NCBI GenBank assembly: GCA_020630715.1 | Contig: JAHDIQ010000003.1 | Location: 189,541 to 253,540 of the forward strand | Direction of reading: 5' to 3' | Source of the DNA: Nonlabens sp. | Lineage (GTDB): Bacteria; Bacteroidota; Bacteroidia; Flavobacteriales; Flavobacteriaceae | DNA length: 64,000 nt | Shown here: positions 3,546 to 64,000 of the stretch, piece by piece | How positions within the stretch are numbered: position 1 is the stretch's first letter | How the letters are laid out: each line of letters begins with the position of its first letter | Translations under genes and position numbers: made by a program | Notes under the pieces: model-generated | Database searches by the model: none | Told to the model about the DNA's origin: nothing | Seen by the model: only the letters and a program-made list of their open reading frames with translations

Positions 3546-4637
3546 TTAATAATAGTTTACAGGGTTTGTTCGTGCATCTGCACAAAGGATTGCAAAACTA
3601 CTAAATTTTTTGCTAAGATATTCTTGTAAAAGGTTTTTTGTAAACTGCTCACTTTCATAATGTCCTACGTCGCAAAGCAGGATGTTTTCTCCTTGAAAAA
3701 AGTCATGGTATTTAAGGTCTGCAGTGACATAAGCGTCTGCACCAGCACGTATGGCATTTTGTATGGCAAACGCACCAGAGCCACCTAGTACTGCTACAGT
3801 TTTTATATTACGCTTTCGCGAAAGCGAATACCGTACAGCACCACTACCATAAACAGCTTTAAGTAATTTAAGAAAATCATCTACATTTAAGGTGTTTTCT
3901 AAAGTTCCTATGGCGCCCATTCCTATGTTTTGGTAAGTGTTTTCTAGCGTGGAAACTTCATAAGCGACCTGTTCATAAGGATGTGATGTGAATAAAGCTT
4001 TTAGAATTTTTGATTCCAGATGTGGTAAATAAGTGATGGAAAGTTGCTGTTCATTAACGGTACTGCGCGTTCCGGATTCTCCTATAACCGGTTCACTTTT
4101 TTCATTTCCCTTAAACGTGCCAGTTCCAGAAGTGCTAAAACTACACTCATCATAATTTCCTAAACTACCAGCTCCTGCATTAAATAATGCTTTTTTTACA
4201 TCATGGATATGATCATTAGGAACGTAGGTGATTAATTTCTTGATCAGCCCTTTTTTGGGCGTTAAGGTTGTGATGTTTTTTAGTCCTAATTCACTAGCCA
4301 TCAGGTAACTTACACCACCATTTGCAACATCTATTGCGGTGTGAACGGCATAAATAGCAATATCGTTTTTAATCGCTTTTACGACCGTTTTGCGCACATA
4401 GTCACTAGCTCTTAGGTGTTTTAAACCTTTGAAGATGATGGGATGAAAGGCAACGATAAGGTTGCAGTTTTTCTCAATCGCCTCATCTACAACATTCTCT
4501 AAACAGTCTAATGTCACTAAAATTCCATTTACGGGATCGTTATAATCGCCCGTAAGAAGACCTACATTATCAAAATCTTCTGCATAATGAAGTGGCGCTA
4601 ATTGTTCTAAATAATCTGTTACATCTTTAATAACCAT
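3546..4637 (-). CDS. Nif3-like dinuclear metal centre protein
   Basis: This belongs to the NIF3/YbgI family, sometimes labelled GTP cyclohydrolase I type 2 homolog; the true role is unclear. Motifs include AFHPIIFKGLKH near the N-terminus and DVGHYESE near the C-terminus, which supply the metal ligands. A middle PII-like insertion brings it to 363 residues, typical of the long form. I chose the ATG at 4637 (MVIKDVTDYLEQ), which matches family N-termini. An upstream start at 4691 would run into lpxK. A copy of the 16-bp palindrome (3811-3826) encodes LSRKR in this protein. Confidence 0.9.
   Translation of the reverse strand: MVIKDVTDYLEQLAPLHYAEDFDNVGLLTGDYNDPVNGILVTLDCLENVVDEAIEKNCNLIVAFHPIIFKGLKHLRASDYVRKTVVKAIKNDIAIYAVHTAIDVANGGVSYLMASELGLKNITTLTPKKGLIKKLITYVPNDHIHDVKKALFNAGAGSLGNYDECSFSTSGTGTFKGNEKSEPVIGESGTRSTVNEQQLSITYLPHLESKILKALFTSHPYEQVAYEVSTLENTYQNIGMGAIGTLENTLNVDDFLKLLKAVYGSGAVRYSLSRKRNIKTVAVLGGSGAFAIQNAIRAGADAYVTADLKYHDFFQGENILLCDVGHYESEQFTKNLLQEYLSKKFSSFAILCADARTNPVNYY
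3811..3826. repeat. 16-bp palindrome, copy in the Nif3-family gene
   Basis: Exact copy of CGCTTTCGCGAAAGCG. In the minus-strand Nif3-family frame it reads LSRKR. It is preceded by TTA and followed by AATACC on the plus strand. Confidence 0.95.
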
Positions 4638-4672
4638 AGTGTCGCTTAAAGTGCTAAAGATAAAATTTAACC

Positions 4673-4680
4673 TACTTTTG
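4673..4680 (+). promoter_or_regulatory. -7 promoter box of lpxK
   Basis: TACTTTTG fits the Bacteroidota -7 consensus TAnnTTTG and ends five bases before the lpxK ATG. No clear -33 TTG was seen. The transcript would begin at or very near the start codon. Confidence 0.5.
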
Positions 4681-4685
4681 AAGCT

Positions 4686-8075: not shown

Positions 8076-9056
8076 CTATGATAATTGTTTTGCTAAATCA
8101 ATAAGTCTATTTGAATAGCCAGTTTCATTATCATACCAGCCTATCAATTTCACCATCTTACCTATGACACTAGTCATTTGAGAATCAAAGATGCAGGAAT
8201 AAGGACTGCCCGATATGTCAATAGAAACTAATGGTACGTTTGTGTAAGAGAATGTTGTAGGATTCGCTTTTGCAAAAGCGAGAAACGCATCATTTACCTC
8301 TTCAATAGAAGTATCACGTTTTACATTAATGGTCATATCTGTAAGACTACCATTAGGAACGGGAACGCGTATTCCACAACCACCTATGACATCACTTAAA
8401 TGTGGGAAAATTTTAGTTAACGCCTTTGCTGCTCCAGTTGTGGTAGGTACGATAGACTGTCCAGCCGCACGTGCACGACGTAAATCACGATGTGGTTGAT
8501 CGTGTAGACTCTGATCAGTAGTGTAGCTATGTACCGTAGTTATGTAAGCTTGTTCCACACCACATAATTCATCTAATACTTTTATCAATGGCGCTGCATT
8601 GTTTGTGGTACAACTCGCGTTAGAAATAATGGTGTCTGTAGTTTCTAGAATATGTTCATTAACGCCTAAAACTACCGTTTTAATATCGTCCTCTAGTGGC
8701 GGCGCGCTTAAGATTACCTTTTTTGCGCCGGCGTGAATATGCTTTTGAAGATCGGCATTAGTCTTAAACTTTCCGGTGGATTCTATAACGACGTCAATTC
8801 CAGACCAGTCTAGATCATCTAAACTTTTATGACTGCTGTATGCTACGATTTGATCTTCTATAGTTATGTGATCGCTATTAAATGAGACTTCTCGATCTAA
8901 AACACCATGAATAGAATCATACTTTAATAAATGCGACATGGTTTCAATAGAAGCAACATCATTAATCGCTACCACCTGAATATGTGGATCGTTTAAAGAT
9001 GTCCTTAAAAAAGTGCGTCCTATACGGCCAAAACCGTTGATGGCAATTTTAATCAT
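8076..9056 (-). CDS. gap: Glyceraldehyde-3-phosphate dehydrogenase
   Basis: This glycolytic/gluconeogenic enzyme converts glyceraldehyde-3-phosphate to 1,3-bisphosphoglycerate. The 326-residue protein has the Rossmann motif INGFGRIGR, catalytic Cys149 in SNASCTTN and catalytic His176 in TTVHSYT. The active-site block continues NAAP where most GAPDHs have a larger aliphatic residue, a small departure. The gene starts three bases after the lipA stop codon, so the two form an operon. A near copy of the 16-bp palindrome (8265-8280) encodes AFAKA. Confidence 0.94.
   Translation of the reverse strand: MIKIAINGFGRIGRTFLRTSLNDPHIQVVAINDVASIETMSHLLKYDSIHGVLDREVSFNSDHITIEDQIVAYSSHKSLDDLDWSGIDVVIESTGKFKTNADLQKHIHAGAKKVILSAPPLEDDIKTVVLGVNEHILETTDTIISNASCTTNNAAPLIKVLDELCGVEQAYITTVHSYTTDQSLHDQPHRDLRRARAAGQSIVPTTTGAAKALTKIFPHLSDVIGGCGIRVPVPNGSLTDMTINVKRDTSIEEVNDAFLAFAKANPTTFSYTNVPLVSIDISGSPYSCIFDSQMTSVIGKMVKLIGWYDNETGYSNRLIDLAKQLS
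8265..8280. repeat. Variant of the 16-bp palindrome in gap
   Basis: CGCTTTTGCAAAAGCG is still a perfect palindrome but has TGCA in the centre in place of CGCG. It is read as AFAKA in GAPDH. It may be a decayed or precursor form, or a chance match in a conserved protein segment. Confidence 0.5.
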
Positions 9057-10000: not shown

Positions 10001-11104
10001 CTATTTCCATCGCTTTGGCGGATTTGTAGTATTACTAAAAAACAAACCTAGTTGTGTAAAAATTAATAAGAGTTCAAGGAATGGTAAAATGTAGATGATA
10101 CCGCTTTCGCGAAAGCGTAATAAACCTCTACCTACAACGATACACACGATCAAATATCTTAAGAGAACAATACCCAAAGCAATCATCCAGTTACCGAAAA
10201 TAAATGCCGTTATAGCACTCAATATAAACCCAATCTGGCTGAGGTAAAAAAGTCCTAATAAGAACTTGTGTTTTTTCTTATAGTGTTTTGAAGTATTGAC
10301 ATGGCGTCGTTTTTGCGTCCACCATGCAGACCATGTATTTTTTGCTTCACTAGTTGTAAAACTATCAGGATGTAAACTTACCGTCGTGTTTTTATGAGTC
10401 GCTGCTTGATTCACAAAAAGGTCATCATCACCGCCTAAAATATTCATGTGATTCATAAAACCACGCACGTCATAAAACTGTTTTGAAGTATAGGCTAGAT
10501 TACGACCTACGCCCATATAGGGATTACCATATAAGGCATAGCTCATATATTGTAACGCTGTCATTCCTGTTTCATAACGCACTAGCGCGTTAAGCAAGGA
10601 ATTCTTTTTTCTAGCATAACCACCATATCCTAAAACAATGGTTTTTTCCTGATGTAGATGAAATGCTATATGGCTAAGCCATTGATCGCTTGCTGGTCTA
10701 CAATCTGCATCAATAAATACTAGTTTGTTATGAATCGCTTTTTTAATTCCTAGCGTTAGTGCGTATTTTTTGTTTCCCCAGAAGCTTTCATTATTCTCTA
10801 CGTTGACTTTAACAACGCGAGAATCTTGTGCTTGAAATTCTTCAATGACATCTAGAGTATCGTCAATAGAAGCATCGTTGATGAGAATAATTTCAAAATT
10901 AGGGTGATCTTGTTGAAGTAATAAAGGGACGAGTTCTTTAAGATTTTCTTGTTCGTTTTTTGAACAAACGATAACAGATACAGGTTCCTTTGATGGAACT
11001 AAATCTACGATTTTTGAAAATCCTAATCGTGCAAAGAAGAAATAGTAGATAAGGTTAAGCAAGGTAAATCCCGCCAAAACCATCACAGCAATATCTAGCT
11101 CCAT
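10001..11104 (-). CDS. Family 2 glycosyltransferase, membrane-anchored
   Basis: A 367-residue GT-A type glycosyltransferase. After an N-terminal membrane segment come SVIVCSKNEQENL, INDASIDDT, FIDADCRPAS (metal-binding DxD-like) and later TQKRRH, matching the (Q/R)xxRW-type acceptor motif. Two to three membrane helices follow at the C-terminus. The substrate cannot be read from the sequence. It follows a small membrane/Cys protein gene by seven bases. A palindrome copy (10102-10117) encodes LLRFRESGI between the last helices. Confidence 0.88.
   Translation of the reverse strand: MELDIAVMVLAGFTLLNLIYYFFFARLGFSKIVDLVPSKEPVSVIVCSKNEQENLKELVPLLLQQDHPNFEIILINDASIDDTLDVIEEFQAQDSRVVKVNVENNESFWGNKKYALTLGIKKAIHNKLVFIDADCRPASDQWLSHIAFHLHQEKTIVLGYGGYARKKNSLLNALVRYETGMTALQYMSYALYGNPYMGVGRNLAYTSKQFYDVRGFMNHMNILGGDDDLFVNQAATHKNTTVSLHPDSFTTSEAKNTWSAWWTQKRRHVNTSKHYKKKHKFLLGLFYLSQIGFILSAITAFIFGNWMIALGIVLLRYLIVCIVVGRGLLRFRESGIIYILPFLELLLIFTQLGLFFSNTTNPPKRWK
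10102..10117. repeat. 16-bp palindrome, copy in the glycosyltransferase gene
   Basis: Exact copy, read as RFRES in the minus-strand frame and placed in a short loop between C-terminal membrane helices. It is followed by TAATAA on the plus strand, matching the TTA flank seen at other copies. Confidence 0.95.
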
Positions 11105-11375: not shown

Positions 11376-12407
11376 CTACTCATTGATAAGATTCACCTCT
11401 GTATCGATTTCAATGCCATAACGATCTTTTACGGCTTGCTGTATGGTTCTAGCTACCTGTAAAACCTCGCTACCAGTCGCCTCACCATGATTTACTAACA
11501 CCAGCGCTTGTTTATCATGTATGCCAGCATCACCATAGCGTTTGCCTTTAAAACCGCAACGGTCTATTAGCCATCCAGCTGGTACTTTTACTAGTGAATC
11601 ATTTACTGGGTAATGTGGTAATTCTGGATGCATCCGCAATAGATCATCATAAATCTCTTTTTTAATAATTGGGTTTTTAAAGAAGCTACCACTGTTTCCT
11701 AAGATCTTAGAATCTGGTAGTTTACTACTGCGTATGTTAACGACAGCTCGTGCTACTTTTTCAATAGATAATGAACCGTCTAACTGTTCTAGTTCGTTTT
11801 GAATCGCACCATAGCTGGTTTTAAAATCGTAGTTATCCGTTTTATTTAAGTTGGTTAGTTTAAAAGTAACGGCAGTAATCACATACTGTCCACGAGCTTC
11901 ATTCTTAAAAATACTATCGCGGTAACCAAATTGACAGTCGGCTAGGGAAAGTTGTTTGTGTTCACCAGTTTTAATATCAATGACATCGCAGGAGTGAAAG
12001 ACATCTTTTAACTCTATGCCGTAAGCACCTATGTTTTGAATAGGTGAGGTGCCTACATTTCCTGGTATTAAAGCTAGATTTTCTATTCCAGCCCAGTTGT
12101 TTTCAATACAGTGCATCACAAACTCATGCCAGTTTTCACCAGCCATAGAGGTTACTAAAATATGATCCTTATTTTCTTCTAAGATTTCAATTCCCTTAAT
12201 ATTAAGATGTAGAACTGGTTTTTCAATATCTTTTAAGATCAACATGTTGCTTCCGCCACCTAGCAAGAACACTTCCTGGTCATGGTAGTAACTTAATGCA
12301 TCAGTTAATTGAGTAACTGTGGTGATGTTAGTATACGCTTTCGCGAAAGCGGAAATACCAAACGTATTGTGCTCTTTAAGATTGATCTGTGATTGAATAT
12401 GAATCAC
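11376..12407 (-). CDS. murB: UDP-N-acetylenolpyruvoylglucosamine reductase
   Basis: MurB reduces UDP-GlcNAc-enolpyruvate to UDP-MurNAc, a cytoplasmic step of peptidoglycan synthesis. The 343-residue protein has the FAD-binding LGGGSNMLI, IPGNVGTSPIQNIGAYG, GYRDSIFK and the active-site segment GNSGSFFKNP of type I MurB. It starts with GTG at 12407, in a GTGA overlap with the stop codon of the upstream aminotransferase gene, which suggests coupled translation. A palindrome copy near the N-terminus encodes AFAKA. Confidence 0.95.
   Translation of the reverse strand: MIHIQSQINLKEHNTFGISAFAKAYTNITTVTQLTDALSYYHDQEVFLLGGGSNMLILKDIEKPVLHLNIKGIEILEENKDHILVTSMAGENWHEFVMHCIENNWAGIENLALIPGNVGTSPIQNIGAYGIELKDVFHSCDVIDIKTGEHKQLSLADCQFGYRDSIFKNEARGQYVITAVTFKLTNLNKTDNYDFKTSYGAIQNELEQLDGSLSIEKVARAVVNIRSSKLPDSKILGNSGSFFKNPIIKKEIYDDLLRMHPELPHYPVNDSLVKVPAGWLIDRCGFKGKRYGDAGIHDKQALVLVNHGEATGSEVLQVARTIQQAVKDRYGIEIDTEVNLINE
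12336..12351. repeat. 16-bp palindrome, copy in murB
   Basis: Exact copy, read as AFAKA at about residues 20-24 of MurB. It is preceded by TATA and followed by GAAATACC, matching the flanks of other copies. Confidence 0.95.
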
Positions 12408-32638: not shown

Positions 32639-32664
32639 GGTCAAAAGTAATCAAATGCTTTGTT

Positions 32665-32745: not shown

Positions 32746-32853
32746 ATAATCTCATCGTTCATAACTCACTGTAAAAAGCTCGTTCTAGTTTCGTACAACA
32801 AAAGTCCTTGAAAATGGTTATAATACTTACATTTGCCTACCGCAGTTTTATCT

Positions 32854-42788: not shown

Positions 42789-42835
42789 TGATTTTGAATA
42801 AAAGTAGTTTAATAACTAGTGCAACAGAAGTGCAT

Positions 42836-43252: not shown

Positions 43253-43254
43253 TG

Positions 43255-43887: not shown

Positions 43888-43891
43888 AAAT

Positions 43892-45118: not shown

Positions 45119-45122
45119 CTTT

Positions 45123-49568: not shown

Positions 49569-49605
49569 TTAATTGTGGTATTAATTCAGTTAATAAATGG
49601 GTGTA

Positions 49606-49621
49606 CGCTTTCGCGAAAGCG
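49606..49621. repeat. 16-bp palindrome, intergenic copy
   Basis: The only exact copy outside a gene. It lies between the RND-TolC gene start (49568) and the stop of the small Cys/His gene (49668). It is preceded by GTGTA and followed by AAAAC. Confidence 0.95.
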
Positions 49622-49667
49622 AAAACAAATAATATCTCCCAAAGGGAAACATCACAACAGGATATAG

Positions 49668-50003
49668 CTATCCTATAAAAACTGAATTATCCCGTGGTGG
49701 TTGTAATAGGGAAAGGGAAATATCCTTGCCTATACTGTCAAAATAAACCGTAGAAAGTTTATAGTCTGCTGGATGGTAAAGGTCTAAGACATTTAACCCA
49801 AAATCCAACGTGTGAACGTGACAGCAGTGACAATGACAAAAAGGGGAACACATATCAAGTAGATTGTGGTCGTGATCGCCTGTATCACTTTGTGAAAATT
49901 CTATTTGCGTGCTATCCTCAGAAGAGTCAACATTTGCATCACTGCAAGGCGCAAAATTAAGCGCAAGCAGATAAAATGAGAATATGAGCGTAAAGATTTT
50001 CAC
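49668..50003 (-). CDS. Small secreted Cys/His protein (DUF6660-like)
   Basis: A 111-residue protein starting with GTG at 50003. It has a signal peptide (FSFYLLALNFAPC), an acidic middle, then CSPFCHCHCCHVH, a dense Cys/His cluster that suits metal binding. Similar proteins occur upstream of efflux pumps in Bacteroidota and are labelled DUF6660. A TATCTTTG box (50015-50008, minus) lies four bases upstream, so it may start a transcript that includes the RND-TolC gene. Confidence 0.75.
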   Translation of the reverse strand: MKIFTLIFSFYLLALNFAPCSDANVDSSEDSTQIEFSQSDTGDHDHNLLDMCSPFCHCHCCHVHTLDFGLNVLDLYHPADYKLSTVYFDSIGKDISLSLLQPPRDNSVFIG

Positions 50004-50007
50004 AATA

Positions 50008-50015
50008 CAAAGATA
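50008..50015 (-). promoter_or_regulatory. -7 promoter box upstream of the Cys/His gene
   Basis: The minus strand reads TATCTTTG (TAnnTTTG), four bases before the GTG start. It could also drive the RND-TolC unit downstream. Confidence 0.45.
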
Positions 50016-50049
50016 ACAGAATTACAATGCAACTGGTGTGCAAAGGTTT

Positions 50050-51792: not shown

Positions 51793-51796
51793 ACTA

Positions 51797-52285
51797 TTAT
51801 TTCTCGTTTTGTAAACGTTCGATCATCGCATTCATTTCTTCAATCTCTTTTCGTTGTGCTTTGATAATTTCCTCTGCAAGTTTTTTTACTTTTGGATCTT
51901 GTATATCTGCACGCTCACTGGTTAAAATTGCTATGGAATGGTGTGGTATCATTGCTTTCATCCAGAGTATATCGCCTACGGTAGATTTTTGCTCACGCAC
52001 TAATCCTAAAGCTCCAAGAAACAACACAACACTACCTACTAGAATAGCAATATTCTTCTTCTTATTTTTATACATATTAAGCATAAATAATAGCATTATT
52101 ACAGCCATAGTAGAAATACCTAAACAGACCATATAAAATCGAGTAAGACTAAATCTTACGTGATCAAATTCATAAGTATTTAAATACATTGTAATGTACA
52201 TTGCTATAAATGATGCTCCCAGCATCAAGAAAAACTTAGTGTACTGGCTCATTCCTTCTTTGTTGTTGTGTTCGTTTGAATTCAT
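51797..52285 (-). CDS. DUF305-like membrane protein
   Basis: A 162-residue protein with three membrane helices and a C-terminal soluble helix region containing MIPHHSIAILTSERA, the DUF305 signature (MxxHHxxAI). Such proteins accompany copper-resistance genes and may bind metal through His and Met. It lies 23 bases after CopA and before the CusB-like adaptor. Confidence 0.85.
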   Translation of the reverse strand: MNSNEHNNKEGMSQYTKFFLMLGASFIAMYITMYLNTYEFDHVRFSLTRFYMVCLGISTMAVIMLLFMLNMYKNKKKNIAILVGSVVLFLGALGLVREQKSTVGDILWMKAMIPHHSIAILTSERADIQDPKVKKLAEEIIKAQRKEIEEMNAMIERLQNEK

Positions 52286-52308
52286 AATTTTTGGTTTTTA
52301 AGTTATTT

Positions 52309-54831: not shown

Positions 54832-54833
54832 TT

Positions 54834-56060
54834 TTATTGAATTATGAATTTTATAATCAAACCTCCTGCAAGCCATACATAACAAATGAATGCTGCATAT
54901 TTTAAGATGGTTTCCAGCAATTGGCTTTTTGGTGCCATCTCGCTCATAGAATGCTCAACGTCTTTTTTCTTGTAAAAGCCCAAGTAAATCAGGTAGGCGG
55001 AAATAGCAAGAAAGGCAATGTTCAAAAAGAAGGTGTAGTCAATCTTAAAATGTTCTTTATCCTGAATTTTTACCTGCGATGGGTCTGGCAGTATACTAAG
55101 CAAGTCGAAACTATAGTGTAGTGCCAGTGATGTACCAATCAAAGCTGTAAACAGCAGGAATAATATGAACAATGACATCTTCCATCCGTAGTATTTTGCA
55201 TTGATTCGCAATACGGGAAAAACGACCAAATCGCTAAAAATAAATGCCATAACCCCTGCAAAACTTACGCCCTTACCAAAGAGTAAAGCTGCCAAAGGAA
55301 TATTACCCATTGAGCCGATAAACGTCAAAAACGCAGCAACAGGTCCGACCACGATATGTTCCAGAATTTCGAAAAAAGTAAAATCTGTATTGCCTTGACC
55401 ACTATTGATAAACAAGGTCTGAAAAAAGGAATCGGGAACGAATGCCGCTACGATTCCAGCGATGGTAAAGCCTACGGTTACGTCCTTCCAGACCATCTGC
55501 CATTCCATCTTATATTTTTTAGCTACACGTGCCCAGCTATCTTCCTTCTTAATCTGTTTTTTCCAATCCTTGGAATCGTCCATTGCATCATCCTCTTCAC
55601 TTTCAAGATTTTTTCGTGCTTTCTCAATAAGCTTCTTAGGGTTGATGATGCGTATCAATATCCAACAAATAATAATTAGCAATATGCCGCCTACATACTC
55701 GCCCACAACAAATTGCCATCCCAGAAAAATGGAAATGATGATTCCCAGTTCTATAACCAAATTAGTAGATGCCAGTAGATACGCTATGGAAGATGAAAAA
55801 CTTGCTCCTTTCTTGAAGATGGATTTAGTTCCTGCCAGCGCGGCAAAACTGCAAGAGCTACTTATAAAGCCAAAAAATGTACCCAAGAGCATACTTTTGC
55901 CTTCCTTTTCTCCCATTGCTTTTTGCATCCGCTTTTCGGTTACAAAAATCTGTATCATACTACTGATGATGTAACCCAATATAAACGCCCATAGTGCCAT
56001 CCAGAAAAATCCGGTAGTCGTATAGGCCGCTTCGCCCCATTGTTTTAAAAAATCATTCAT
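54834..56060 (-). CDS. Permease (YraQ/ArsP-type, DUF318-like)
   Basis: A 408-residue membrane protein with about eight to ten helices. GFISSSCSFAALAGTKSIFKKGAS near residue 65 and GSMGNIPLAALLFGKG later match the twin repeats of the permease family that includes ArsP/YraQ. The substrate is unknown. In this place, two bases upstream of copA, it could move a metal or metalloid compound, or support copper export. Confidence 0.85.
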   Translation of the reverse strand: MNDFLKQWGEAAYTTTGFFWMALWAFILGYIISSMIQIFVTEKRMQKAMGEKEGKSMLLGTFFGFISSSCSFAALAGTKSIFKKGASFSSSIAYLLASTNLVIELGIIISIFLGWQFVVGEYVGGILLIIICWILIRIINPKKLIEKARKNLESEEDDAMDDSKDWKKQIKKEDSWARVAKKYKMEWQMVWKDVTVGFTIAGIVAAFVPDSFFQTLFINSGQGNTDFTFFEILEHIVVGPVAAFLTFIGSMGNIPLAALLFGKGVSFAGVMAFIFSDLVVFPVLRINAKYYGWKMSLFILFLLFTALIGTSLALHYSFDLLSILPDPSQVKIQDKEHFKIDYTFFLNIAFLAISAYLIYLGFYKKKDVEHSMSEMAPKSQLLETILKYAAFICYVWLAGGLIIKFIIQ

Positions 56061-56085
56061 ACCTCATTATCTTTGTGCCTGAAAT

Positions 56086-56133
56086 GGGAAGGGGTTCTAA
56101 CTAACCAACCATCAATGAAAAAATTCCCTTCCC
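56086..56133. other. Stem-loop between the permease and haem-binding genes
   Basis: GGGAAGGG (56086-56093) and CCCTTCCC (56126-56133) form an 8-bp stem with a 32-base loop. No T-run follows on either strand, so it is not a standard terminator. It may shape the mRNA between two genes. Confidence 0.4.
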
Positions 56134-56144
56134 GCATCAGGACT

Positions 56145-56600
56145 TTACTCTAAATCATCTTTTAAAGTTTTCATATAATTCAATACTGCTTCCTTTTCCT
56201 TCTCTGAAAAAATAGCATCTCTATGAATAAGCGTGTAGCTATCCAAGGGCATCTCGCCGCTTTCTATCTGCTTAATGATAGAGCGCAGTTTACTCTTCTT
56301 TCTTCTGTCTGAATAGTTGTCCCATTCGTTAAAATTTAATTCTGCTTTTCCTTCTTTAATATGGTCTTCCAAAAACCAAGCTGCTGGCTGAATTTTGCTG
56401 TACCAAGGATAAACTGTGTTATTGCTATGGCAATCATAGCAGGACTGCATTAATTGATTCTCAATTTCAGACGGCACTTTATTTACCAAGACAAAATCAG
56501 TTTCAGGTGTCGTATAGCTTTCATTTTTATCCGTCGGAAAAAACTGAATTACAACAAGAGCACCTAATGCTATCCACGCTATGATTTTTAAAACTTTCAA
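56145..56600 (-). CDS. Haem-binding domain protein (c-type motif)
   Basis: A 151-residue protein with an N-terminal membrane helix and CYDCHSNNTVYPWYSK, a CxxCH haem motif within a domain usually called haem-binding domain. The start is TTG at 56600, directly after the stop of the DUF3347 gene. It would face the periplasm. It may serve electron transfer linked to copper oxidation; this is inference. Confidence 0.85.
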   Translation of the reverse strand: MKVLKIIAWIALGALVVIQFFPTDKNESYTTPETDFVLVNKVPSEIENQLMQSCYDCHSNNTVYPWYSKIQPAAWFLEDHIKEGKAELNFNEWDNYSDRRKKSKLRSIIKQIESGEMPLDSYTLIHRDAIFSEKEKEAVLNYMKTLKDDLE

Positions 56601-57191
56601 TTAGTTTATTTCTCGTTGTACTTTACCGCATTTTAACATCTGGCTACCATAATAGGGATTACGCACTTCCTCTTTTGTACTCAACCAAGCTGTACCACCA
56701 TCATACATTGGGCAAAATTGTTCGTAGAGCTTTTTATCCGTTCCGGTAATGGCTACCATATCGGTAACGTCCTTACTCAAAATCTTAAAATGCTCTCGTT
56801 GATGCTTGATATCGCTTTCGCCAATATGCTCTGCGTGCTCTGTGGCATCTTCAATAATGTCTTTCAATTCACTTTGTTCATTATCAGAATAGTTGGATGC
56901 ATCAAAAGCTTTCAGTGATTTCGCTAATGTGTTACCAAGCTCTTTTGCTTTGCCATTGTCATCGTTTACAAGCGCATCTTTTAAGTTGAAATAATCATTC
57001 AGGATTGCTTCTGCTTTTGCGTCTTGGTTGTCACTCATCGGCATATCGTCCTTGTCATCCATAGATTCTTGGTGCATCTCATTGCTCATCGGCGCAGCAG
57101 CCTCTTCTTTGTTTCCGTCTTTACAGGAAGCTGTTAAAATCATTGTGGCAGCCAGTGCCATTGTACTCATTGTTCTTTTTACTGTTTTCAT
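56601..57191 (-). CDS. DUF3347 domain protein, secreted
   Basis: A 196-residue protein with a signal/lipoprotein N-terminus ([12 protein letters not shown]), an acidic Met-rich linker (residues 35-65), and a DUF3347 domain (about 65-196) containing [30 protein letters not shown] and [14 protein letters not shown]. The domain is also the tail of the CusB-like adaptor (50050-51792). Cys and Met residues suggest copper binding. It sits between the multicopper oxidase and haem-binding genes. Confidence 0.88.
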
Positions 57192-57216
57192 TTTCTTTGT
57201 TTTAAATTATTACTTT

Positions 57217-59583
57217 TTAAAATCGGGCTAAAAGGCCGCCACCCCAGCCATATCGGTTATTGTAATTTGCCTGTAACGAAAAGTTTCGGGATACGATATA
57301 TGAGGCTCCCACCAGCCATTGCGTTTCCCCCTGATAGGATGTGTCTCCAATATCGTTCACCCAACCAAAGTCAGCTCGGTATTCGTATTCGCCTTCCAGA
57401 AAAATTCTCGGAAAAATCAAGAATTCCCTGTCCAGACGAATTCTTGGCCTTAGTTGGTGGTCCATACTGACATCCACATTAAAACGGTACGGTGTAAAAT
57501 ATTTTACACCCACCAAACCTACTGTATTGAAGGTATCATAAGAATCGGGTGTTGAAGTTTCTGTATTTACCCCTACATACAGGCGCACCCAATCATTCAG
57601 GTATCTGTTATAGTTTACTTCTGCTTCAAGATTTTTGTCATAATCAAACTCTGCCCTTAAACCAAAGCCATTTCGGATATTGCTTGACATCAAAAAGAGT
57701 TCATTAAAATTTGAGCCTGCACGCAACAATCCCCAAGAATAGTAATGGTCTGTCTCATTGATAAGTTTCTGCATTGGATAATCTTTCATTCTTTCGTCCC
57801 TTGGGGTATCGTAACTAAACACTCGCGCCATACCACCCATCATATGGTATAATACGTGGCAATGAAAGAACCAATCGCCATATTCTTCGTTATAAAATTC
57901 TATGACCACTTTCTGCATTGGTGGTACATTGACAGTATGTTTTAATGGGGAACGTTCACCATTTTCGTTGATGACCCTAAAGTAATGGCCGTGCAAGTGC
58001 ATAGGGTGGTGCATCATTGTGAGGTTATTAAGTGTAATTCTGGTTACTTCACCTCCTTTTATATTTATCTTGTCAGTTTCTGATAATGGCACACCATTCA
58101 TACTCCAAACATATCGTTGCATATTGCCGGTCAGGTTCAACAGGATGTCATTTACTGGCAAATCAGCATTGTAGGTGGTATTTTCCTTTGCTTTTAAGAA
58201 ATCATAGTTGAAGTAGGTTTTACGGGTATCATAATTAAAGGATGAAGTGTCTTTCATCATCATAGACATATTGTGACCCATATCGCCATTCATTTTATCA
58301 GTAGGTTCAGTGGATTTAATTGGCATTGAATCCTTTTTCATTCCTATCGTATCATCCATCTTCATCTGGTCGTTCATTTTGCTATCTTTCATTGACATAT
58401 TATCGTGCATCCCCATTTTCATTTGGCCGTCCTTCATATCCATCTTCATTCCATAATTCTCCTTCAAATATTCTGGTGTTTTCTTCTTTTTGTTACCTAC
58501 CATTGCAGGTGCGCCCATTTTCATATCCATTTTAGCCATTTGCTTCATCATCTCCACTTTATCAGGTCTGTCAATTCTTTTAGCTGGATAGAGAGTCCCG
58601 CTCCCTAATTGTATAGAGGTATGACCAGAGCCATCTTGTGCCGTAGCGGTAACCTCTATAGCACCTTCGGGAATAGTAACGATAACATCATACGTCTCAG
58701 CTATACCAAAGAGAAATCTGTTTTTAGAAACGGGCTGCACATCAACACCGTCACTTGCAACTAACAATGGATTACCACCACCGAAATCCACCCAGTAGTA
58801 AGTAGAAGCCGAGGCATTGATAAAGCGAAGACGTACTTTTTCCCCTGGTTTAAATTCTGGATATTCGGCAAGTGATTTACCATTGCTCAAGAATGCGGGA
58901 TAATAAATATCTGCTATATCAGCACCTTCCATTCTATCTCTCCAGAACTTAAATTGTGCTCCCAAGGCACCTTCTTTTATGACTCTACTTAATGGTACTG
59001 CTGTTCCTTTTTTAACTTGATACCACTCGTTTCCCCTTTTAAGGTTTCGCAATACATTCATTGGGTCCTCGTTGGTCCAATCAGATAGAACAACTACTAA
59101 ATCTTTGTCATAATCCAATGTTTTTTCTTTAGGTTGAATGACTATTGAACCATAAACACCGCTTTGCTCCTGTAGCATCGTATGGGAATGGTACCAATAG
59201 GTTCCTGATTGATTAATAGGAATTCTATATTGAAATGTTGTACCGGGCTTTATTGGCGGTGTTGTTAAATACGGTACGCCATCATAAAAGTTGGGAAGTA
59301 TCAACCCGTGCCAGTGTACTGAGGTTTCTTCATCCATTTTATTGGTTACATTAATGATGGCAAGGTCGCCTTCGTTAAATTCCAAAACTGGTCCAGGGAT
59401 ACCACCATTGATGGTCATTCCCTTAGCGCTTACACCAGCGAGCGTCACTTCATTTTCTTCAATCGTAAGATTGTATTCCTTAACTGGTCTTCCTTCTTCT
59501 TTTCTGTCTTGTCCGTTAGTTCCCACTTGGGCAAATACTGTTGAAGAAAATAGCAGTAGTGTAATAATTCTTAGCATTTTCAT
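57217..59583 (-). CDS. Multicopper oxidase fused to a CopB-like outer-membrane barrel
   Basis: A 788-residue secreted protein (start at MKMLRIITLLLFSSTVFA). The oxidase part has SVHWHGLILPNFYDGVP, GTYWYHSHTMLQEQ, MHHPMHLHGHYFRV and DWFFHCHVLYHMMGGM, giving the copper ligands. Between them lies a Met/Lys/Asp-rich insert of about 100 residues. After the oxidase, about 160 residues (from HYYSWGLLRAGSNFNELFL to the Phe end) look like beta strands of CopB, the outer-membrane partner in other bacteria. So CopA(PcoA) and CopB functions seem joined. Its start has a TATTTTTG box (59615-59608, minus). Confidence 0.88.
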   Translation of the reverse strand: MKMLRIITLLLFSSTVFAQVGTNGQDRKEEGRPVKEYNLTIEENEVTLAGVSAKGMTINGGIPGPVLEFNEGDLAIINVTNKMDEETSVHWHGLILPNFYDGVPYLTTPPIKPGTTFQYRIPINQSGTYWYHSHTMLQEQSGVYGSIVIQPKEKTLDYDKDLVVVLSDWTNEDPMNVLRNLKRGNEWYQVKKGTAVPLSRVIKEGALGAQFKFWRDRMEGADIADIYYPAFLSNGKSLAEYPEFKPGEKVRLRFINASASTYYWVDFGGGNPLLVASDGVDVQPVSKNRFLFGIAETYDVIVTIPEGAIEVTATAQDGSGHTSIQLGSGTLYPAKRIDRPDKVEMMKQMAKMDMKMGAPAMVGNKKKKTPEYLKENYGMKMDMKDGQMKMGMHDNMSMKDSKMNDQMKMDDTIGMKKDSMPIKSTEPTDKMNGDMGHNMSMMMKDTSSFNYDTRKTYFNYDFLKAKENTTYNADLPVNDILLNLTGNMQRYVWSMNGVPLSETDKINIKGGEVTRITLNNLTMMHHPMHLHGHYFRVINENGERSPLKHTVNVPPMQKVVIEFYNEEYGDWFFHCHVLYHMMGGMARVFSYDTPRDERMKDYPMQKLINETDHYYSWGLLRAGSNFNELFLMSSNIRNGFGLRAEFDYDKNLEAEVNYNRYLNDWVRLYVGVNTETSTPDSYDTFNTVGLVGVKYFTPYRFNVDVSMDHQLRPRIRLDREFLIFPRIFLEGEYEYRADFGWVNDIGDTSYQGETQWLVGASYIVSRNFSLQANYNNRYGWGGGLLARF

Positions 59584-59607
59584 AGTTTTCTTAATGTTTT
59601 TGTTTAA

Positions 59608-59615
59608 CAAAAATA
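59608..59615 (-). promoter_or_regulatory. -7 promoter box of the multicopper oxidase unit
   Basis: The minus strand reads TATTTTTG (TAnnTTTG), 24 bases before the chosen start of the oxidase gene. It could drive the oxidase, DUF3347 and haem-binding genes. Confidence 0.4.
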
Positions 59616-59657
59616 TTATTGATATTCAGTTTGTTGTGTTATAATTCTGGTTCATAT

Positions 59658-60224
59658 CTATATAATCTTGTCTAAAGGATTTCTAAAATTTTTATGCCCA
59701 TCCTTATAATCGCTAAGGCTCATCCCGGTTTCACTTTTAAACTGTTTGCTTAGATGATTGACATTGCTGTAATCGAGCAATTGGCTCATTTCTGTGAAAT
59801 TATAATCGGGTGTTTGGATAAGTTCCTTGACCTTTTCTATCTTCAGTTTGATAAAATATTTTTCAATAGTGATGCCCTCGGTAATGGAAAACACCTTGCT
59901 GATTTTTGAATAGTCCTTTTGTAATTTATCAGCAAGAAAATCTGATAACTTTCCTTCAATTTCAAGGGGCGTTACATTCAATAACTTTATCAATTCAATT
60001 TTTACTTGCTCGGTCAATTTATCCTCGGTAGAAGTGATGAGTGCAAATCCATTTCTGTCTAAAATTTCGATTAGTGTGTTCAATTGTTCTTTTTCATCGA
60101 TATCCAATCGAAGTCTTCCCAACTCAATATCCAACAGACTAATATTTGCCTTATACAATTCATCTTTTAAGACCTTGATGCAACGGTCGCACACCATATT
60201 TTTTATGTAAAAATCTTTTACCAT
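59658..60224 (-). CDS. AraC-type regulator with N-terminal HMA-like metal domain
   Basis: A 188-residue protein. The first 70 residues look like a heavy-metal-associated domain: YIKNMVCDRCIKVLKDEL carries CxxC in the usual MxCxxC setting. The C-terminal half is an AraC HTH (PDYNFTEMSQLLDYSNVNHLSKQFKSETGMSLSDYKDG). The metal domain probably senses copper or silver directly. It is the last gene of the RND-TolC-regulator run, two bases after tolC, upstream of the oxidase unit. Confidence 0.88.
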   Translation of the reverse strand: MVKDFYIKNMVCDRCIKVLKDELYKANISLLDIELGRLRLDIDEKEQLNTLIEILDRNGFALITSTEDKLTEQVKIELIKLLNVTPLEIEGKLSDFLADKLQKDYSKISKVFSITEGITIEKYFIKLKIEKVKELIQTPDYNFTEMSQLLDYSNVNHLSKQFKSETGMSLSDYKDGHKNFRNPLDKII

Positions 60225-60226
60225 TG

Positions 60227-61525
60227 CTATTGAATTAAATAATTGATTATGGATTGTTGCACGTAATACATCTGAACCGATTCTATCTGATTCATCTGAA
60301 ATTTCAATTGCAGTTCTTGTATATCAAGCACATCGTTAAAATCGATGGTTCCCGTTTCGTAATTCTTGATAAGAATTTGCTCGGCATCTTTGGCGTGCTT
60401 TAAATTCGTAGTTTGGGTATTGAATTTAATTCGGGCTTGGTTGCGTTGGGATATCGCTTTCGCGAAAGCGGATTCCAACACATTTAATTGTTGCTCTTTT
60501 TGGGTTTCAATTTCCTGTTGGCGTAGTTCATTTTGCCTTGAAATTGACTTATATCGATTATTAAAAATTGGAATAGAAACCGAAACCATAGGCATCAATA
60601 CATCTTTTCCATTGTCTATAGGGTTCATATCGGTACGCTCGCTTACCGGTAAATAATCCACACCAAAGCCAACCATAGGTAGGCTCTCGCGTTGATTGAG
60701 CAATTCTGATTGTGCTACGGATTCGTAAAGTTTGTCGTATTTGAGCAGTTCGGGATTGAGCGATAGTGCGTCTGTTCCGTATATGGGGTCATCCTCTGGG
60801 ATTTCCATTATTGCAACTATCTCAACCGTGCTATTTTCATCCCGATTTAGAAGATTATTAAAGGTTGTTTGTTCTGAATTGAATTCCTCTTCCAATACCT
60901 CTTTTTGCTGTTGCAATTCATTTTGACGAATCTGCAACCGCAATACATCTACCGCAGATGCTTTGCCTACTTCTACCGAAGTCAGGGCAAGACGCTCATA
61001 AGTTTTTAATAGTTGGATGTTCTCGTCGAGTACCTTTTGCTTTGCTCTTGTTTCATACAATCGATAATAGGATTGCGCTACTGAAAGCGCCAATTTTCGT
61101 TTGGCGATTGTGATTCCCACGTATTCAGCTTCGGCCATTGAAGTCGCATAATTTTCACGTGCGGTAACGGTACCAAACCAGGGCAACATCTGTTTTACGC
61201 CTATCCGTGCTCGTTGTGCGCCCACCCTTGTTTCTGGCTCACTTACAAAATAGCCTGCGCTGACTTCCGTATTAGGTAGCCAGTTTGCTTCATTGACCTT
61301 TTCTTCCGCAATATTGTAGCGCAATTCAAAAGCCTGAATTTCTGGATTGTTACTTACGGCTTCTTCAATATAGCTTTGTAGTTGTTGCGCCTGCCCGCTG
61401 ATTGAAATCAGTCCAATGCTCATTATTAGTAGTGCGTTCAGATGGGCTTTCGCACTTCGTCTTCGCTCAGCATAAACTTCAGCGGAAACAAACAAAAGAC
61501 AGATTATGATTTTAATATTTTTCAT
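60227..61525 (-). CDS. TolC family outer-membrane efflux protein (CusC-like)
   Basis: A 432-residue outer-membrane channel. The body has the repeated coiled-coil pattern of TolC, with EEAVSNNPEIQAFELRYN and GKASAVDVLRLQIRQNELQQQKEVLEEE. The N-terminus is odd: a first signal-like segment (MKNIKIIICLLFVSAEVYA), then RRRSAKAHLN, then a second hydrophobic segment ending SGQAQ. It overlaps the RND pump gene start by four bases. A palindrome copy encodes AFAKA near the C-terminus. Confidence 0.88.
   Translation of the reverse strand: MKNIKIIICLLFVSAEVYAERRRSAKAHLNALLIMSIGLISISGQAQQLQSYIEEAVSNNPEIQAFELRYNIAEEKVNEANWLPNTEVSAGYFVSEPETRVGAQRARIGVKQMLPWFGTVTARENYATSMAEAEYVGITIAKRKLALSVAQSYYRLYETRAKQKVLDENIQLLKTYERLALTSVEVGKASAVDVLRLQIRQNELQQQKEVLEEEFNSEQTTFNNLLNRDENSTVEIVAIMEIPEDDPIYGTDALSLNPELLKYDKLYESVAQSELLNQRESLPMVGFGVDYLPVSERTDMNPIDNGKDVLMPMVSVSIPIFNNRYKSISRQNELRQQEIETQKEQQLNVLESAFAKAISQRNQARIKFNTQTTNLKHAKDAEQILIKNYETGTIDFNDVLDIQELQLKFQMNQIESVQMYYVQQSIINYLIQ
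60455..60470. repeat. 16-bp palindrome, copy in the tolC-like gene
   Basis: Exact copy, read as AFAKA in a coiled-coil stretch (LESAFAKAISQRN). The right flank GATTCC matches the extended form. Confidence 0.95.
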
Positions 61526-64000
61526 TTGTTTGCTCTTTTAAGTTGGTATTCTTTTTTCCAGCTATATAGAACTGGTAAAAGGAAATAAGATGTGACGTCG
61601 ATTATCATTCCGCCAAAAATGGGGATGGCCATCGGTATCATAATGTCGCTTCCTTTTCCTGTAGATGTGAGTACTGGCAACAATGCCAAAACTGTGGTCA
61701 CGGTGGTCATCAAGCAAGGACGTATTCTTTTTCCTGCGGCTTCTAATGTGGCGAGACGTATGCCTTTTTTACTGTCTGGCTCGTTGCTTTTAAATGATTG
61801 GTCTAAATAGGTTGCCATTACAACACCATCATCAGTCGCAATACCGAAAAGGGCAATAAAACCGACCCAAACGGCCACACTTAAATTGATGGTTTTCATA
61901 TTGAACAAGTCCCGTAGGTTCTCGCCAAAAAAGCTGAAATTGAAAAACCAATCCTGACCGTATAACCATATCATTATAAAACCACCTGCAAAGGCTACAG
62001 CGATGGCAGTAAAAACCATTAGCGACGTAGAAACCGACCTGAACTGGAAATACAAAATCAAGAAAATGACCAGCAAGCAAAGTGGCACAACTACCGATAA
62101 CGTTTTTTCTGCTCGCAATTGATTTTCGTATGTTCCTGTAAATCGGTAACTGATTCCTTGTGGCACGACCAAATCGCCATTATCGATTTTCTGTTGAATG
62201 AGCGCTTGTGCATTTTCCACCACATCGACTTCGGCAAAGCCATCGAGCTTATCAAACAGCACATACCCAATCAAGAAGGTGTCTTCACTTTTAATGACCT
62301 GTGGGCCTTGCTCGTAACGAATATCGACCAGTTCGCCCAAAGGAACCGGACTTCCAGTTGACACAGGAACATAGATACTTTTTAAATCTTCTGGATTTGC
62401 ACGCAGCTCACGTGGATAGCGTACACGCACACCATAGCGCTCACGTCCTTCTACTGTTTGGGTAAGTGGCATACCGCCCACAGCTACTTGAAGCACTTCC
62501 TGAACATCCATAATAGAAATTCCGTAGCGTGCCAGTTGGTCTCTCTTAATGTCAATCAATAAATAGGGTTTCCCCACTATGCGGTCTGCAAAAACGGCTT
62601 GTTCTTTGACACCTTCGGCTTGTTTTAGGATGTCTTCGAGTTGCAGACCAAAGTTTTCTATGGTTTTTAAATCTGGTCCTTTTACCTTGATGCCCATTGG
62701 TGCTCGCATACCCGTTTGTAGCATTACGAGTCGCGTCTCGATGGGTTGCAGCTTGGGCGCAGAAGTCACGCCTGGAAACTTGGTCACTTTTACGATTTCA
62801 TTCCAAATGTCATCAGGACTGCTTATTTCGGGTCGCCAGTTTCGATAATATTCCCCATCGTTATCTTCAATCAAATCATTGCGTGTTGCACTTGTTTTGA
62901 GTTGTGACGCTTCATAGTTTGCATCATCATCGATTTCATTATTTGGGTTGATAATGAACTTGTCATTTTTCAGCACAAATAGACCATCGTCGTTTACACG
63001 GTAGCGTTGTCTCTCGCCATTTTCATTTCGCATATATTCAGACTTGTACTGAATTACATTTTCATACATCGAGAGTGGCGCAGGGTCGAGAGCAGATTCT
63101 GTTCTACCCGCTTTTCCTACTACCGTTTCAATTTCAGGAATGCTCGCCACAGCCATATCCAGTTGTTGTAGCACCCGTTTATTTTCTTCCACACCGGCGT
63201 GCGGTAAGGATGTAGGCATTAATAAGAATGAACCTTCATTAAGTGCTGGCATAAATTCCTTTCCCGTGTTTCGCATTATGACCACACCTAAAATCAGCAC
63301 CGTGGTTGGAATGATTAAAAACAGGTATCGGTTTTGAAGTGCCCAGCGCAAAATCCTGTCATAGTATCTTCGGAAAACTGTAAACACACCAAGCAGTCCA
63401 AAGCAGATAATCGCTACAAAAATCAAATTCATTAGAATGCTGCGGTCAAAACCAAGTGGTCGCCAGTATTCGGCGAGTAGGAAAACAATAGCAACACAGG
63501 AAATAATAATATGGATGAGATTAGCTCGTTTTTCTGTAATTCTATCCCTTACGCTCAAAAGCGCAACAACACCGTAGGCAATCAAAATGAGACCAAGCCA
63601 ATAGCCATAAAAGATGGCTGTGATACCAAGGACAATGAGAACACCATTAATAATGTACTTTGAGCGTTCCATTAGGTTACTTTTCTTAAAAAGAAACGCG
63701 GCAAAAGGCGGTATTAAAAACAGCGCGATTACAAGCGATGCAGCAAGTGCCATTGTTTTTGTAAAGGCGAGTGGTCTGAATAGTTTTCCCTCAGCACCTA
63801 TCATTGTAAACACAGGTAGAAAACTGATAATCGTTGTGAGAACTGCGGTCAAAATTGCACCAGAAACTTCCGCAGTTGCGTTGTAGATAATTTCGTTTGT
63901 GGTGTATTCTATTCCGCTTTCGCGAAAGCGTAATTTTTTATCTTCCAGATGCCTAATCATATTCTCGGCGAGTATGACGCCCACGTCAACCATTGTACCG
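61522..64000 (-). CDS. CusA/CzcA-type RND metal pump, cut by window end
   Basis: The C-terminal 823-plus residues of a heavy-metal RND pump; the 5' part lies beyond base 64000. Visible parts include VDVGVILAENMIRH, the periplasmic porter domains with SLPHAGVEENKRVL, and the last six membrane helices (WVGFIALFGIATDDGVVMATYLDQ). A long insert of charged repeats (residues about 330-400, with NENGERQRYRVNDDG) is unlike the pump at 45123. With the TolC gene just after, it forms a second efflux system. A palindrome copy encodes LRFRESGIEY. Confidence 0.92.
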   Translation of the reverse strand, partial: GTMVDVGVILAENMIRHLEDKKLRFRESGIEYTTNEIIYNATAEVSGAILTAVLTTIISFLPVFTMIGAEGKLFRPLAFTKTMALAASLVIALFLIPPFAAFLFKKSNLMERSKYIINGVLIVLGITAIFYGYWLGLILIAYGVVALLSVRDRITEKRANLIHIIISCVAIVFLLAEYWRPLGFDRSILMNLIFVAIICFGLLGVFTVFRRYYDRILRWALQNRYLFLIIPTTVLILGVVIMRNTGKEFMPALNEGSFLLMPTSLPHAGVEENKRVLQQLDMAVASIPEIETVVGKAGRTESALDPAPLSMYENVIQYKSEYMRNENGERQRYRVNDDGLFVLKNDKFIINPNNEIDDDANYEASQLKTSATRNDLIEDNDGEYYRNWRPEISSPDDIWNEIVKVTKFPGVTSAPKLQPIETRLVMLQTGMRAPMGIKVKGPDLKTIENFGLQLEDILKQAEGVKEQAVFADRIVGKPYLLIDIKRDQLARYGISIMDVQEVLQVAVGGMPLTQTVEGRERYGVRVRYPRELRANPEDLKSIYVPVSTGSPVPLGELVDIRYEQGPQVIKSEDTFLIGYVLFDKLDGFAEVDVVENAQALIQQKIDNGDLVVPQGISYRFTGTYENQLRAEKTLSVVVPLCLLVIFLILYFQFRSVSTSLMVFTAIAVAFAGGFIMIWLYGQDWFFNFSFFGENLRDLFNMKTINLSVAVWVGFIALFGIATDDGVVMATYLDQSFKSNEPDSKKGIRLATLEAAGKRIRPCLMTTVTTVLALLPVLTSTGKGSDIMIPMAIPIFGGMIIDVTSYFLLPVLYSWKKEYQLKRANK
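63915..63930. repeat. 16-bp palindrome, copy in the second RND pump gene
   Basis: Exact copy, read as RFRES. ATTC before and TAATTT after give the inverted form of the extended flank. Confidence 0.95.

What the first reader, a model, noticed from the sequence alone, without database searches (positions are those of the whole stretch)
3811..63930. Dispersed 16-bp perfect palindrome, 13 exact copies in 64 kb
CGCTTTCGCGAAAGCG occurs exactly at 3811, 10102, 12336, 16845, 26873, 35128, 37560, 43118, 45601, 49606, 53178, 60455 and 63915, with near copies at 8265, 23465, 32481 and 50377. Chance would give far less than one copy. Flanks are partly conserved (TTA before, GAAT or GATTCC after, in one orientation), which points to a longer element of about 25 bp that was copied, not just a selected binding site. 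It could be a recognition signal (uptake, segregation, repair) or a remnant of a small mobile repeat.
Basis: seen in the sequence. Interest (0 to 1): 0.85.

Follow-up and report, generated by a model that had tools for sequence, protein, structure and literature searches.

The report
Evenly spaced 16-base genome signal
A group of marine bacteria carries the same 16-letter mirror-image DNA word hundreds of times across its chromosome at regular intervals, even inside essential genes; it behaves like a self-recognition tag, most likely for taking up DNA from its own kind, though that use is inferred and not tested.

Summary
Observation confirmed: 13 exact and 4 near copies in the window, 0.14 expected. 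The genome has 448 exact copies; the 23 genomes searched in its genus, probably Nonlabens, have 180-737 each. Of 397 family genomes searched, only two outside the genus exceed 13 copies (153 and 630).

It is not an inserted repeat. Against orthologues in other genera the palindrome replaces codons without a gap inside it, in all three reading frames. It is kept in place: third-base identity is 0.88 inside, 0.50 outside. In the own genome copies are regularly spaced (mean 4.2 kb, CV 0.43 against 0.98 at random), enriched outside ORFs, and flanked symmetrically by about 30 bp of C-poor, T/G-rich DNA.

This resembles known DNA uptake sequences. My best explanation is a palindromic uptake (self-recognition) sequence for pilus-less flavobacterial transformation. 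Function is inferred: no receptor was found and competence of the genus was not tested. Rivals: a chromosome-organising site, a Chi-like site, a HIP1-like word of other function. A phage, and a metal-efflux cluster shared with other genera, also carry the word.

The parts
3811..3826 (.). exact palindrome CGCTTTCGCGAAAGCG, inside ORF 3546-4691 (-)
8265..8280 (.). near copy, 2 mismatches (CGCTTTTGCAAAAGCG), frame A-F-A-K-A; exact 16-mer in 9 of 20 genus rows
10102..10117 (.). exact palindrome, frame R-F-R-E-S; exact in 16 of 19 genus rows
12336..12351 (.). exact palindrome, frame A-F-A-K-A; exact in 13 of 19 genus rows
16845..16860 (.). exact palindrome in gene 15545-18175 (+), which I take for valyl-tRNA synthetase (valS; name recalled from length and conservation), frame T-L-S-R-K-R; present in all 22 genus loci with this gene (19 exact, 3 with one mismatch) and at the same codon in G227 of g206
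23465..23480 (.). near copy, 1 mismatch, frame R-F-R-E-[I/S]; exact in 14 of 18 genus rows
26873..26888 (.). exact palindrome in ORF 26547-28295 (-)
32481..32496 (.). near copy, 1 mismatch, in ORF 32039-32644 (-)
35128..35143 (.). exact palindrome between ORFs 32833-34851 and 35248-37698 (only a 95-aa ORF, 34907-35194, covers it)
37560..37575 (.). exact palindrome in ORF 35248-37698 (+)
43118..43133 (.). exact palindrome in ORF 42836-43252 (-)
45601..45616 (.). exact palindrome in a CusA/CzcA-family gene (45123-49568, -)
49606..49621 (.). exact palindrome between ORFs, just upstream of the CusA/CzcA-family gene
50377..50392 (.). near copy, 1 mismatch, in an RND-efflux adaptor gene (50050-51792, -)
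53178..53193 (.). exact palindrome in a copper-type P-type ATPase gene (52309-54885, -)
60455..60470 (.). exact palindrome in a TolC-like gene; 3460 bp from the next, a spacing also seen in G122 and G305
63915..63930 (.). exact palindrome in a CusA/CzcA-like gene (61522-63993, -)
40456..64000 (-). copper/heavy-metal efflux cluster, also found with palindromes in other genera

Best explanation
The palindrome is a chromosome-wide self-recognition word, most likely a DNA uptake sequence. A dimeric surface or periplasmic receptor of the pilus-less flavobacterial transformation machinery would bind the 16-bp core, helped by the C-poor, T/G-rich flanks of about 30 bp on each side, and favour import of DNA that carries it. 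Homologous recombination of imported DNA of the same kind would keep copies intact and spread new ones formed by substitution. Copies closer together than a typical imported tract would add little, which gives the regular spacing of about 4 kb. Shown: abundance, lineage restriction, origin by substitution, core conservation, symmetric flanks, regular spacing in two of three genera tested, enrichment outside ORFs. Inferred: binding, uptake, the receptor, drive by recombination, and an origin older than the genera.
For: Copy number and restriction to Nonlabens and two further sampled genera. No gap inside the word; all three reading frames. Mismatch counts are bimodal: 70, 40, 6, 8, 8 copies with 0-4 mismatches in 464 kb. 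Core identity 0.961 against 0.66-0.75 over the next 60 bp, lowest at 16-30 bp; Neisseria uptake sequences are likewise more conserved than average and lie in permissive regions (PMC2397512, passages). Third-base identity 0.88 against 0.50. Regular spacing; in Neisseria, spacing matches conversion-fragment size. C content 0.088 in the 30 nt 5' of sites against 0.183 at random places; AT-rich flanks contribute, to a smaller degree than the core, to the Haemophilus signal (PMC7811141, passages). The ComEC domain is in all 19 palindrome genomes searched (22 of 22 in all) and DUF5689, a competence gene family of Riemerella, in all 10 (29 of 30 in all; PMC8459023, passages). Riemerella columbina takes up its own DNA in preference (PMC7965970, passages).
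Against: The uptake sequences I know of are not palindromic (recalled). Competence of Nonlabens was not tested and I found no receptor. ComEC and DUF5689 also occur in the genera without the word, ComEC even in 10 of 14 control genomes, and the DUF5689 tree does not set the palindrome genera apart. Of 10 palindrome genomes 9 have no T2SSE (PF00437) match over the cut-off; the one in G001 lies in a palindrome-poor stretch: the pilus/ComP route is not supported. Density (one per 4.2-6.7 kb) is lower than about 1 per kb in Haemophilus. g190 is not regular (CV 0.98, 18 gaps), and exact copies alone are less regular (own CV 0.64; G001 CV 0.87 over 93 gaps, though with 2 gaps under 1 kb against 16.3 expected). 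An efflux cluster and phages carry the word, whereas Neisseria uptake sequences are rare in acquired regions.
Confidence: 0.45

Rival explanations
1. Binding site of a dimeric chromosome-organising protein (nucleoid-associated, Noc- or MatP-like, or a condensin loader) that needs an anchor every few kilobases.
For: Perfect palindrome, regular spacing, presence all round a closed chromosome (0-7 copies with up to 1 mismatch in each of 20 samples of 20 kb of G004), recurrence at corresponding places across the genus, enrichment outside ORFs.
Against: Known systems of this kind have tens of sites, often confined to part of the chromosome (recalled). Phages and a transferred gene cluster carry the word too. 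The TTTC/GAAA spacing differs by 2 bp from parS (motif recalled). No candidate protein was identified; ParB-family copy number was not searched.
Confidence: 0.2
2. HIP1-like iterated palindrome kept for another DNA-level reason, such as methylation-directed repair or DNA structure.
For: Palindromic, abundant, inside coding DNA, kept at synonymous positions, as I recall for HIP1. The core contains CGCG and TCGCGA.
Against: 16 fixed bases and about 30 bp of biased flank on each side are much longer than HIP1 or a usual methylase site (recalled). Methylation was not testable here.
Confidence: 0.15
3. Chi-like site: a palindromic, hence two-way, signal that turns the end-resection nuclease from DNA destruction to recombination and so protects self DNA.
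For: One copy per about 4 kb; the strand 5' of each site, which would be the 3' tail after resection, is T/G-rich and C-poor; phage DNA carries copies, as expected if unmarked DNA is degraded.
Against: Known Chi sites are 5-8 nt and directional (recalled). The near-absence of gaps under 1 kb (1 against 22.8 expected) is not required. The nuclease of this genus was not examined.
Confidence: 0.13
4. RNA element such as a transcription terminator.
For: The palindrome can form a 6-bp stem with a 4-nt loop, and the copy at 35128 is scored terminator-like.
Against: The 3' side is A-rich, not T-rich, on both strands. 128 of 199 copies lie inside ORFs. Of 66 copies outside ORFs with neighbours on both sides, 40 lie between co-directed, 16 between divergent and 10 between convergent ORFs, close to the share of spacer DNA of each kind. 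Folding around one site is ordinary (z -1.43).
Confidence: 0.03
5. Remnants of a small mobile or copied repeat (REP/MITE-like).
For: Hundreds of identical copies.
Against: No gap inside the word against outgroups or in 502 well-aligned comparisons within the genus; flanks share composition, not sequence; copies recur at orthologous places.
Confidence: 0.02

Closest known systems
DNA uptake sequences (DUS, Neisseriaceae) and uptake signal sequences (USS, Pasteurellaceae)
   Same: Hundreds of near-perfect, lineage-specific copies, core more conserved than its surroundings, permissive surroundings, non-random spacing, biased flanks
   Different: 16-bp perfect palindrome with symmetric flanks; different phylum; no type IV pilus ATPase in 9 of 10 genomes searched; uptake untested; lower density
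HIP1, highly iterated palindrome of cyanobacteria (recalled; only search listings seen)
   Same: Palindrome iterated through genes and spacers, function debated
   Different: HIP1 is 8 bp and denser; here 16 fixed bases, symmetric C-poor flanks of about 30 bp and few close neighbours
Chi recombination sites (recalled)
   Same: About one per 4-5 kb; T/G-rich strand on the side that would be the resected tail
   Different: Chi is short and directional; no nuclease test here
parS/NBS palindromes of ParB and Noc (recalled)
   Same: 16-bp-class palindromes with TTTC/GAAA half-sites
   Different: Half-site spacing differs by 2 bp; tens of sites rather than hundreds
REP/BIME/MITE repeats (recalled)
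   Same: Many dispersed palindromic copies
   Different: Here no insertion, often inside genes, no longer unit

Membership tests
DUS/USS | Strong genomic over-representation limited to a lineage | tested here: met
DUS/USS | Core kept by selection or drive, surroundings permissive | tested here: met
DUS/USS | Regular spacing at the scale of conversion tracts | tested here: inconclusive
   Regular in own genome and g206, not in g190; tract length not measured
DUS/USS | Rare in recently acquired DNA | tested here: inconclusive
   G001 C4:297970-352821 holds one exact copy between its ends (332468) and a T2SSE-family ATPase at 336408; G004 sample L155 has none; but the efflux cluster and phages carry copies
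DUS/USS | Carrier has genes for DNA import | tested here: met
   ComEC domain in 19 of 19 palindrome genomes searched, DUF5689 in 10 of 10; neither is specific to them, and competence itself was not shown
DUS/USS | Type IV pilus with a sequence-reading minor pilin (as in Neisseria) | tested here: not met
   PF00437 over the cut-off in 1 of 10 palindrome genomes searched (G001); pilins were not searched
DUS/USS | The word raises DNA uptake | not testable with these tools
   needs an uptake assay
HIP1 | Core GCGATCGC (recalled) | tested here: not met
   the word is CGCTTTCGCGAAAGCG
Chi | Modulates the resection nuclease | not testable with these tools
   needs biochemistry
ParB/Noc site | Cognate ParB-family protein | not tested
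   ParB-family proteins were not searched
REP/MITE | Insertion into pre-existing sequence | tested here: not met

The most novel reading that the evidence does not exclude
A DNA uptake (self-recognition) sequence in Bacteroidota and a palindromic one, both firsts as far as I know, read by a pilus-free import machine, already present before Nonlabens and two distant genera parted, scarce in their relative Leeuwenhoekiella, and carried along by phages in their own structural genes and by a travelling metal-efflux cluster.
Probability: 0.4. Interest if true: 0.92.

Novelty: new variant of a known kind. Interest (0 to 1): 0.77.

Why it matters
Uptake sequences with known receptors come, as far as I recall, from two proteobacterial families only. 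An independent, palindromic case would show that genome-wide self-tags evolve repeatedly and would give a handle on the unknown DNA receptor of flavobacterial transformation. If the function is another one, a regularly spaced 16-bp word kept through amino-acid changes inside a tRNA synthetase is a strong DNA-level constraint in need of explanation. It also marks origin: DNA that left a palindrome lineage can be recognised in other genera.

Tried and rejected
Copied or mobile element: rejected. Terminator or RNA hairpin: rejected as the main role. Type IV pilus/ComP route: not supported. DUF5689 as specificity factor: its tree groups G007 (Nonlabens), g206 and g190 (97/91) apart from the other 7 Nonlabens rows, so it neither tracks the word nor is excluded. 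Dialects: samples of g144 (120 kb), g42 (97 kb), g76 (80 kb) and g127 (80 kb) show no other iterated palindrome; g76 has 3 exact copies. A decayed system in Leeuwenhoekiella: g144 genomes have 22-31 near copies (up to 2 mismatches), but so do some genomes of g42 (42, 19, 2), g76 (26, 29, 8) and g127 (G337, 22), and part of the g144 copies sit on the efflux cluster, so this is only a possibility. Macrodomain limit: copies occur all round G004; ori and ter were not mapped. Phages as prophages: no match over 400 bp between the viral stretches and the cell stretches held.

Literature: the 16-mer string is in no held open-access paper. Searches for a highly iterated palindrome with flavobacteria, a palindromic uptake sequence with flavobacteria and Nonlabens with Dokdonia and overrepresented gave no paper; uptake sequence with Bacteroidetes gave 3 and Nonlabens with palindrom- gave 7, none about this by title and abstract start. 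Searches served the background; listings only except PMC7811141, PMC2397512, PMC8459023 and PMC7965970, of which I saw passages. PMC7965970 did count k-mers up to 10 bp in Riemerella and Flavobacterium johnsoniae and left open whether any is an uptake sequence.

Limits: comparisons share ancestry, so P values overstate; exact palindromes can seed blastn hits, which inflates the low-identity bins, so I rely on flank identity of at least 0.75. ORF calls are mechanical (at least 90 aa), and the G004 coding share is lowered by 7.5 kb of masked bases in one sample. The 14 loci were chosen by me, mostly where copies cluster. One search covers 395 genomes, drawn with a floor of 90% completeness. The valS tree used 25 of the 27 loci (G089 and G431, which has an internal stop, left out) plus 6 further Nonlabens, the window and 6 named genera; the DUF5689 tree used 29 of 30 genomes, one locus each. 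Motifs of HIP1, Chi and parS are recalled.
Full report
WHAT IS THERE. The word CGCTTTCGCGAAAGCG occurs 13 times exactly and 4 times with 1-2 mismatches at the stated places. The window's genome has 448 exact copies in 2.98 Mb, and the control word (the pattern read backwards) has none. The 23 genomes searched in the genus have 180-737 copies each. Of 397 genomes searched in the family 48 have at least one copy; outside the genus only G211 (genus g190, 153) and G227 (g206, 630), one genome of each genus sampled, have more than 13. Of 392 genomes searched in the phylum 12 have a copy, none more than 2 except the window's own.

WHOSE GENOME. Named relatives of a conserved window protein (15545-18175, which I take for valyl-tRNA synthetase, valS) are Flavobacteriaceae at up to 71% identity. 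A chloride-pump rhodopsin of genus member G006 is identical over 272 residues to PDB 5fjg/5b2n. I recall that protein as coming from Nonlabens marinus, so the genus is probably Nonlabens; the tool prints no organism.

ANATOMY. In 464 kb of the own genome, copies with 0, 1, 2, 3 and 4 mismatches number 70, 40, 6, 8 and 8: nearly perfect or absent. The preference extends symmetrically: A-T-T-[A/T/C] before the core and its mirror image after it. About 30 bp 5' of the core on either strand are C-poor and T/G-rich: mean C content 0.088 at 110 sites against 0.183 at 11,995 random places, fading to background by about 40-60 bp. The bias is seen on both sides in gene direction and outside ORFs, so it is a DNA-level property. 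It is weaker in g190 and around the viral copies.

POSITION. Own-genome copies with up to 1 mismatch are 4.2 kb apart on average with CV 0.43 (random 0.98 +- 0.09; none of 2000 random sets as low). One gap of 107 is under 1 kb against 22.8 expected, and the longest is 9.6 kb. Exact copies alone have CV 0.64 (random 0.99 +- 0.12). g206 is regular too (CV 0.56 against 0.96 +- 0.15); g190 is not (0.98, 18 gaps); 93 gaps between exact copies of G001 have CV 0.87, with 2 under 1 kb against 16.3 expected. Twenty 20-kb samples all round the closed chromosome of G004 hold 0-7 copies (all). 34 of 110 copies in the own genome and 37 of 89 in G004 are outside ORFs, although ORFs cover 92% and 84% of those samples; copies inside ORFs use all three frames, most often A-F-A-K-A.

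ORIGIN AND CONSERVATION. Around valS, copies recur at corresponding places in 19 genus genomes, the valS copy in each, the others in part of them. At five genes aligned with 7-29 outgroup sequences each, the exact word is in none of the outgroup rows shown (two Leeuwenhoekiella rows at valS come close), and in Nonlabens it stands in place of existing codons with no gap inside it. The valS copy is in all 22 genus loci with that gene, 19 exact and 3 with one mismatch; 20 of these are shown aligned at one codon. G227 (g206) has it at that codon too. G211 (g190) has a copy with one mismatch two bases upstream in another frame, and Leeuwenhoekiella a degenerate copy in the g190 position. In the valS tree G211, G227 and Leeuwenhoekiella with G468 (g144) form one group (100/99), while Nonlabens is separate and its place unresolved. 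g144 genomes have only 22-31 copies with up to 2 mismatches. An older shared system that decayed in Leeuwenhoekiella would fit, but some genomes of g42, g76 and g127 have as many near copies, and separate origins are not excluded. Third-base identity among codons for the same residue is 0.88 inside the word (24 codons) and 0.50 outside (2054 codons). Core identity is 0.961 against 0.66-0.75 over the next 60 bp. At flank identity 0.75-0.85 the word is exactly kept in 340 of 445 comparisons, where neutrality predicts 2-4%.

TRAVELLING DNA. The right part of the window is a copper/heavy-metal efflux cluster: P-type ATPases, CusA/CzcA-family pumps, adaptors, a TolC-like protein and a multicopper oxidase. 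Of 14 loci that I chose in other genera around their few copies, mostly where copies cluster, 12 (from 10 genera) match this cluster at 67-96% identity and carry the word, several at the places of 60455 and 63915; two do not match. A scan of viral contigs gave 41 stretches from 30 contigs, with 49 exact copies in 373 kb held. One 37.4-kb contig has 6 exact copies in three non-overlapping stretches totalling 27.9 kb, and the same phage recurs in two further contigs. It encodes portal, large terminase, head protease, sheath and baseplate proteins, and one copy lies in the portal gene and one in the terminase gene. Its host is unknown; the viral stretches have GC 0.435, above the window's genome. 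The Winogradskyella phage Peternella, annotated with Mu-like features, has a terminase 54.5% identical and no copy with up to 3 mismatches; the five Winogradskyella loci held have none either.

HOW IT MOST LIKELY WORKS. Sharp core conservation, permissive surroundings, non-random spacing and abundance are what DNA uptake sequences show in Neisseria and Haemophilus (PMC2397512 and PMC7811141, passages). Riemerella, placed in this family by those authors, takes up DNA without a known pilus, and R. columbina prefers its own DNA (PMC8459023 and PMC7965970, passages). The palindrome genomes searched have the ComEC domain and the DUF5689 family, as do genera without the word, and 9 of 10 lack a pilus-type ATPase. 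I therefore favour a palindromic uptake sequence spread and kept by uptake-biased recombination (0.45). A chromosome-organising site (0.2), a HIP1-like word of other function (0.15) and a Chi-like protective site (0.13) remain. Phage carriage fits the Chi-like and generic self-tag readings at least as well as uptake. No result here separates these by mechanism; a receptor or binding protein would.

NOVELTY. The string is in no held open-access paper and targeted searches gave nothing on it. I file it as a new variant of a known kind: an iterated genomic signal word.

Noticed in passing
window 40456-64000: Copper/heavy-metal efflux cluster shared at 67-96% nucleotide identity with loci from 10 other genera of the family (12 of 14 loci chosen), with Nonlabens-type palindromes in them: probable horizontal transfer out of a palindrome lineage.
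   Followed up: partly
L266:4125 and 5885; L262; L283: A tailed phage of unknown host, related to the Mu-like phage Peternella, carries the word inside its portal and terminase genes; Peternella itself (L386, host Winogradskyella) has none.
   Followed up: partly
L063 (Robertkochia sp.): A different imperfect palindromic 12-mer, AGCTTGTCGAAG, occurs 4 times in 22.6 kb: possibly another iterated word.
   Followed up: no
L049 and L052, position 11302 (valS): Leeuwenhoekiella keeps a degenerate palindrome (GCTTCCGCGAAAGCG) in valS two bases from the Nonlabens position, in the g190 frame.
   Followed up: yes
L352 (G007): The DUF5689 protein of one Nonlabens groups with those of g206 and g190 rather than with other Nonlabens: possible exchange of a competence gene. 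G007 also has the lowest palindrome count (255) of the genus genomes that are at least 90% complete.
   Followed up: no
G001 C4:297970-352821: 55 kb with a single exact palindrome between its ends (332468) and a T2SSE-family ATPase hit at 336408: probably recently acquired DNA.
   Followed up: no
L155 (G004:C1:200001-220000): Three ORFs of about 1850-2120 codons in tandem fill most of a 20-kb sample without any copy of the word.
   Followed up: no
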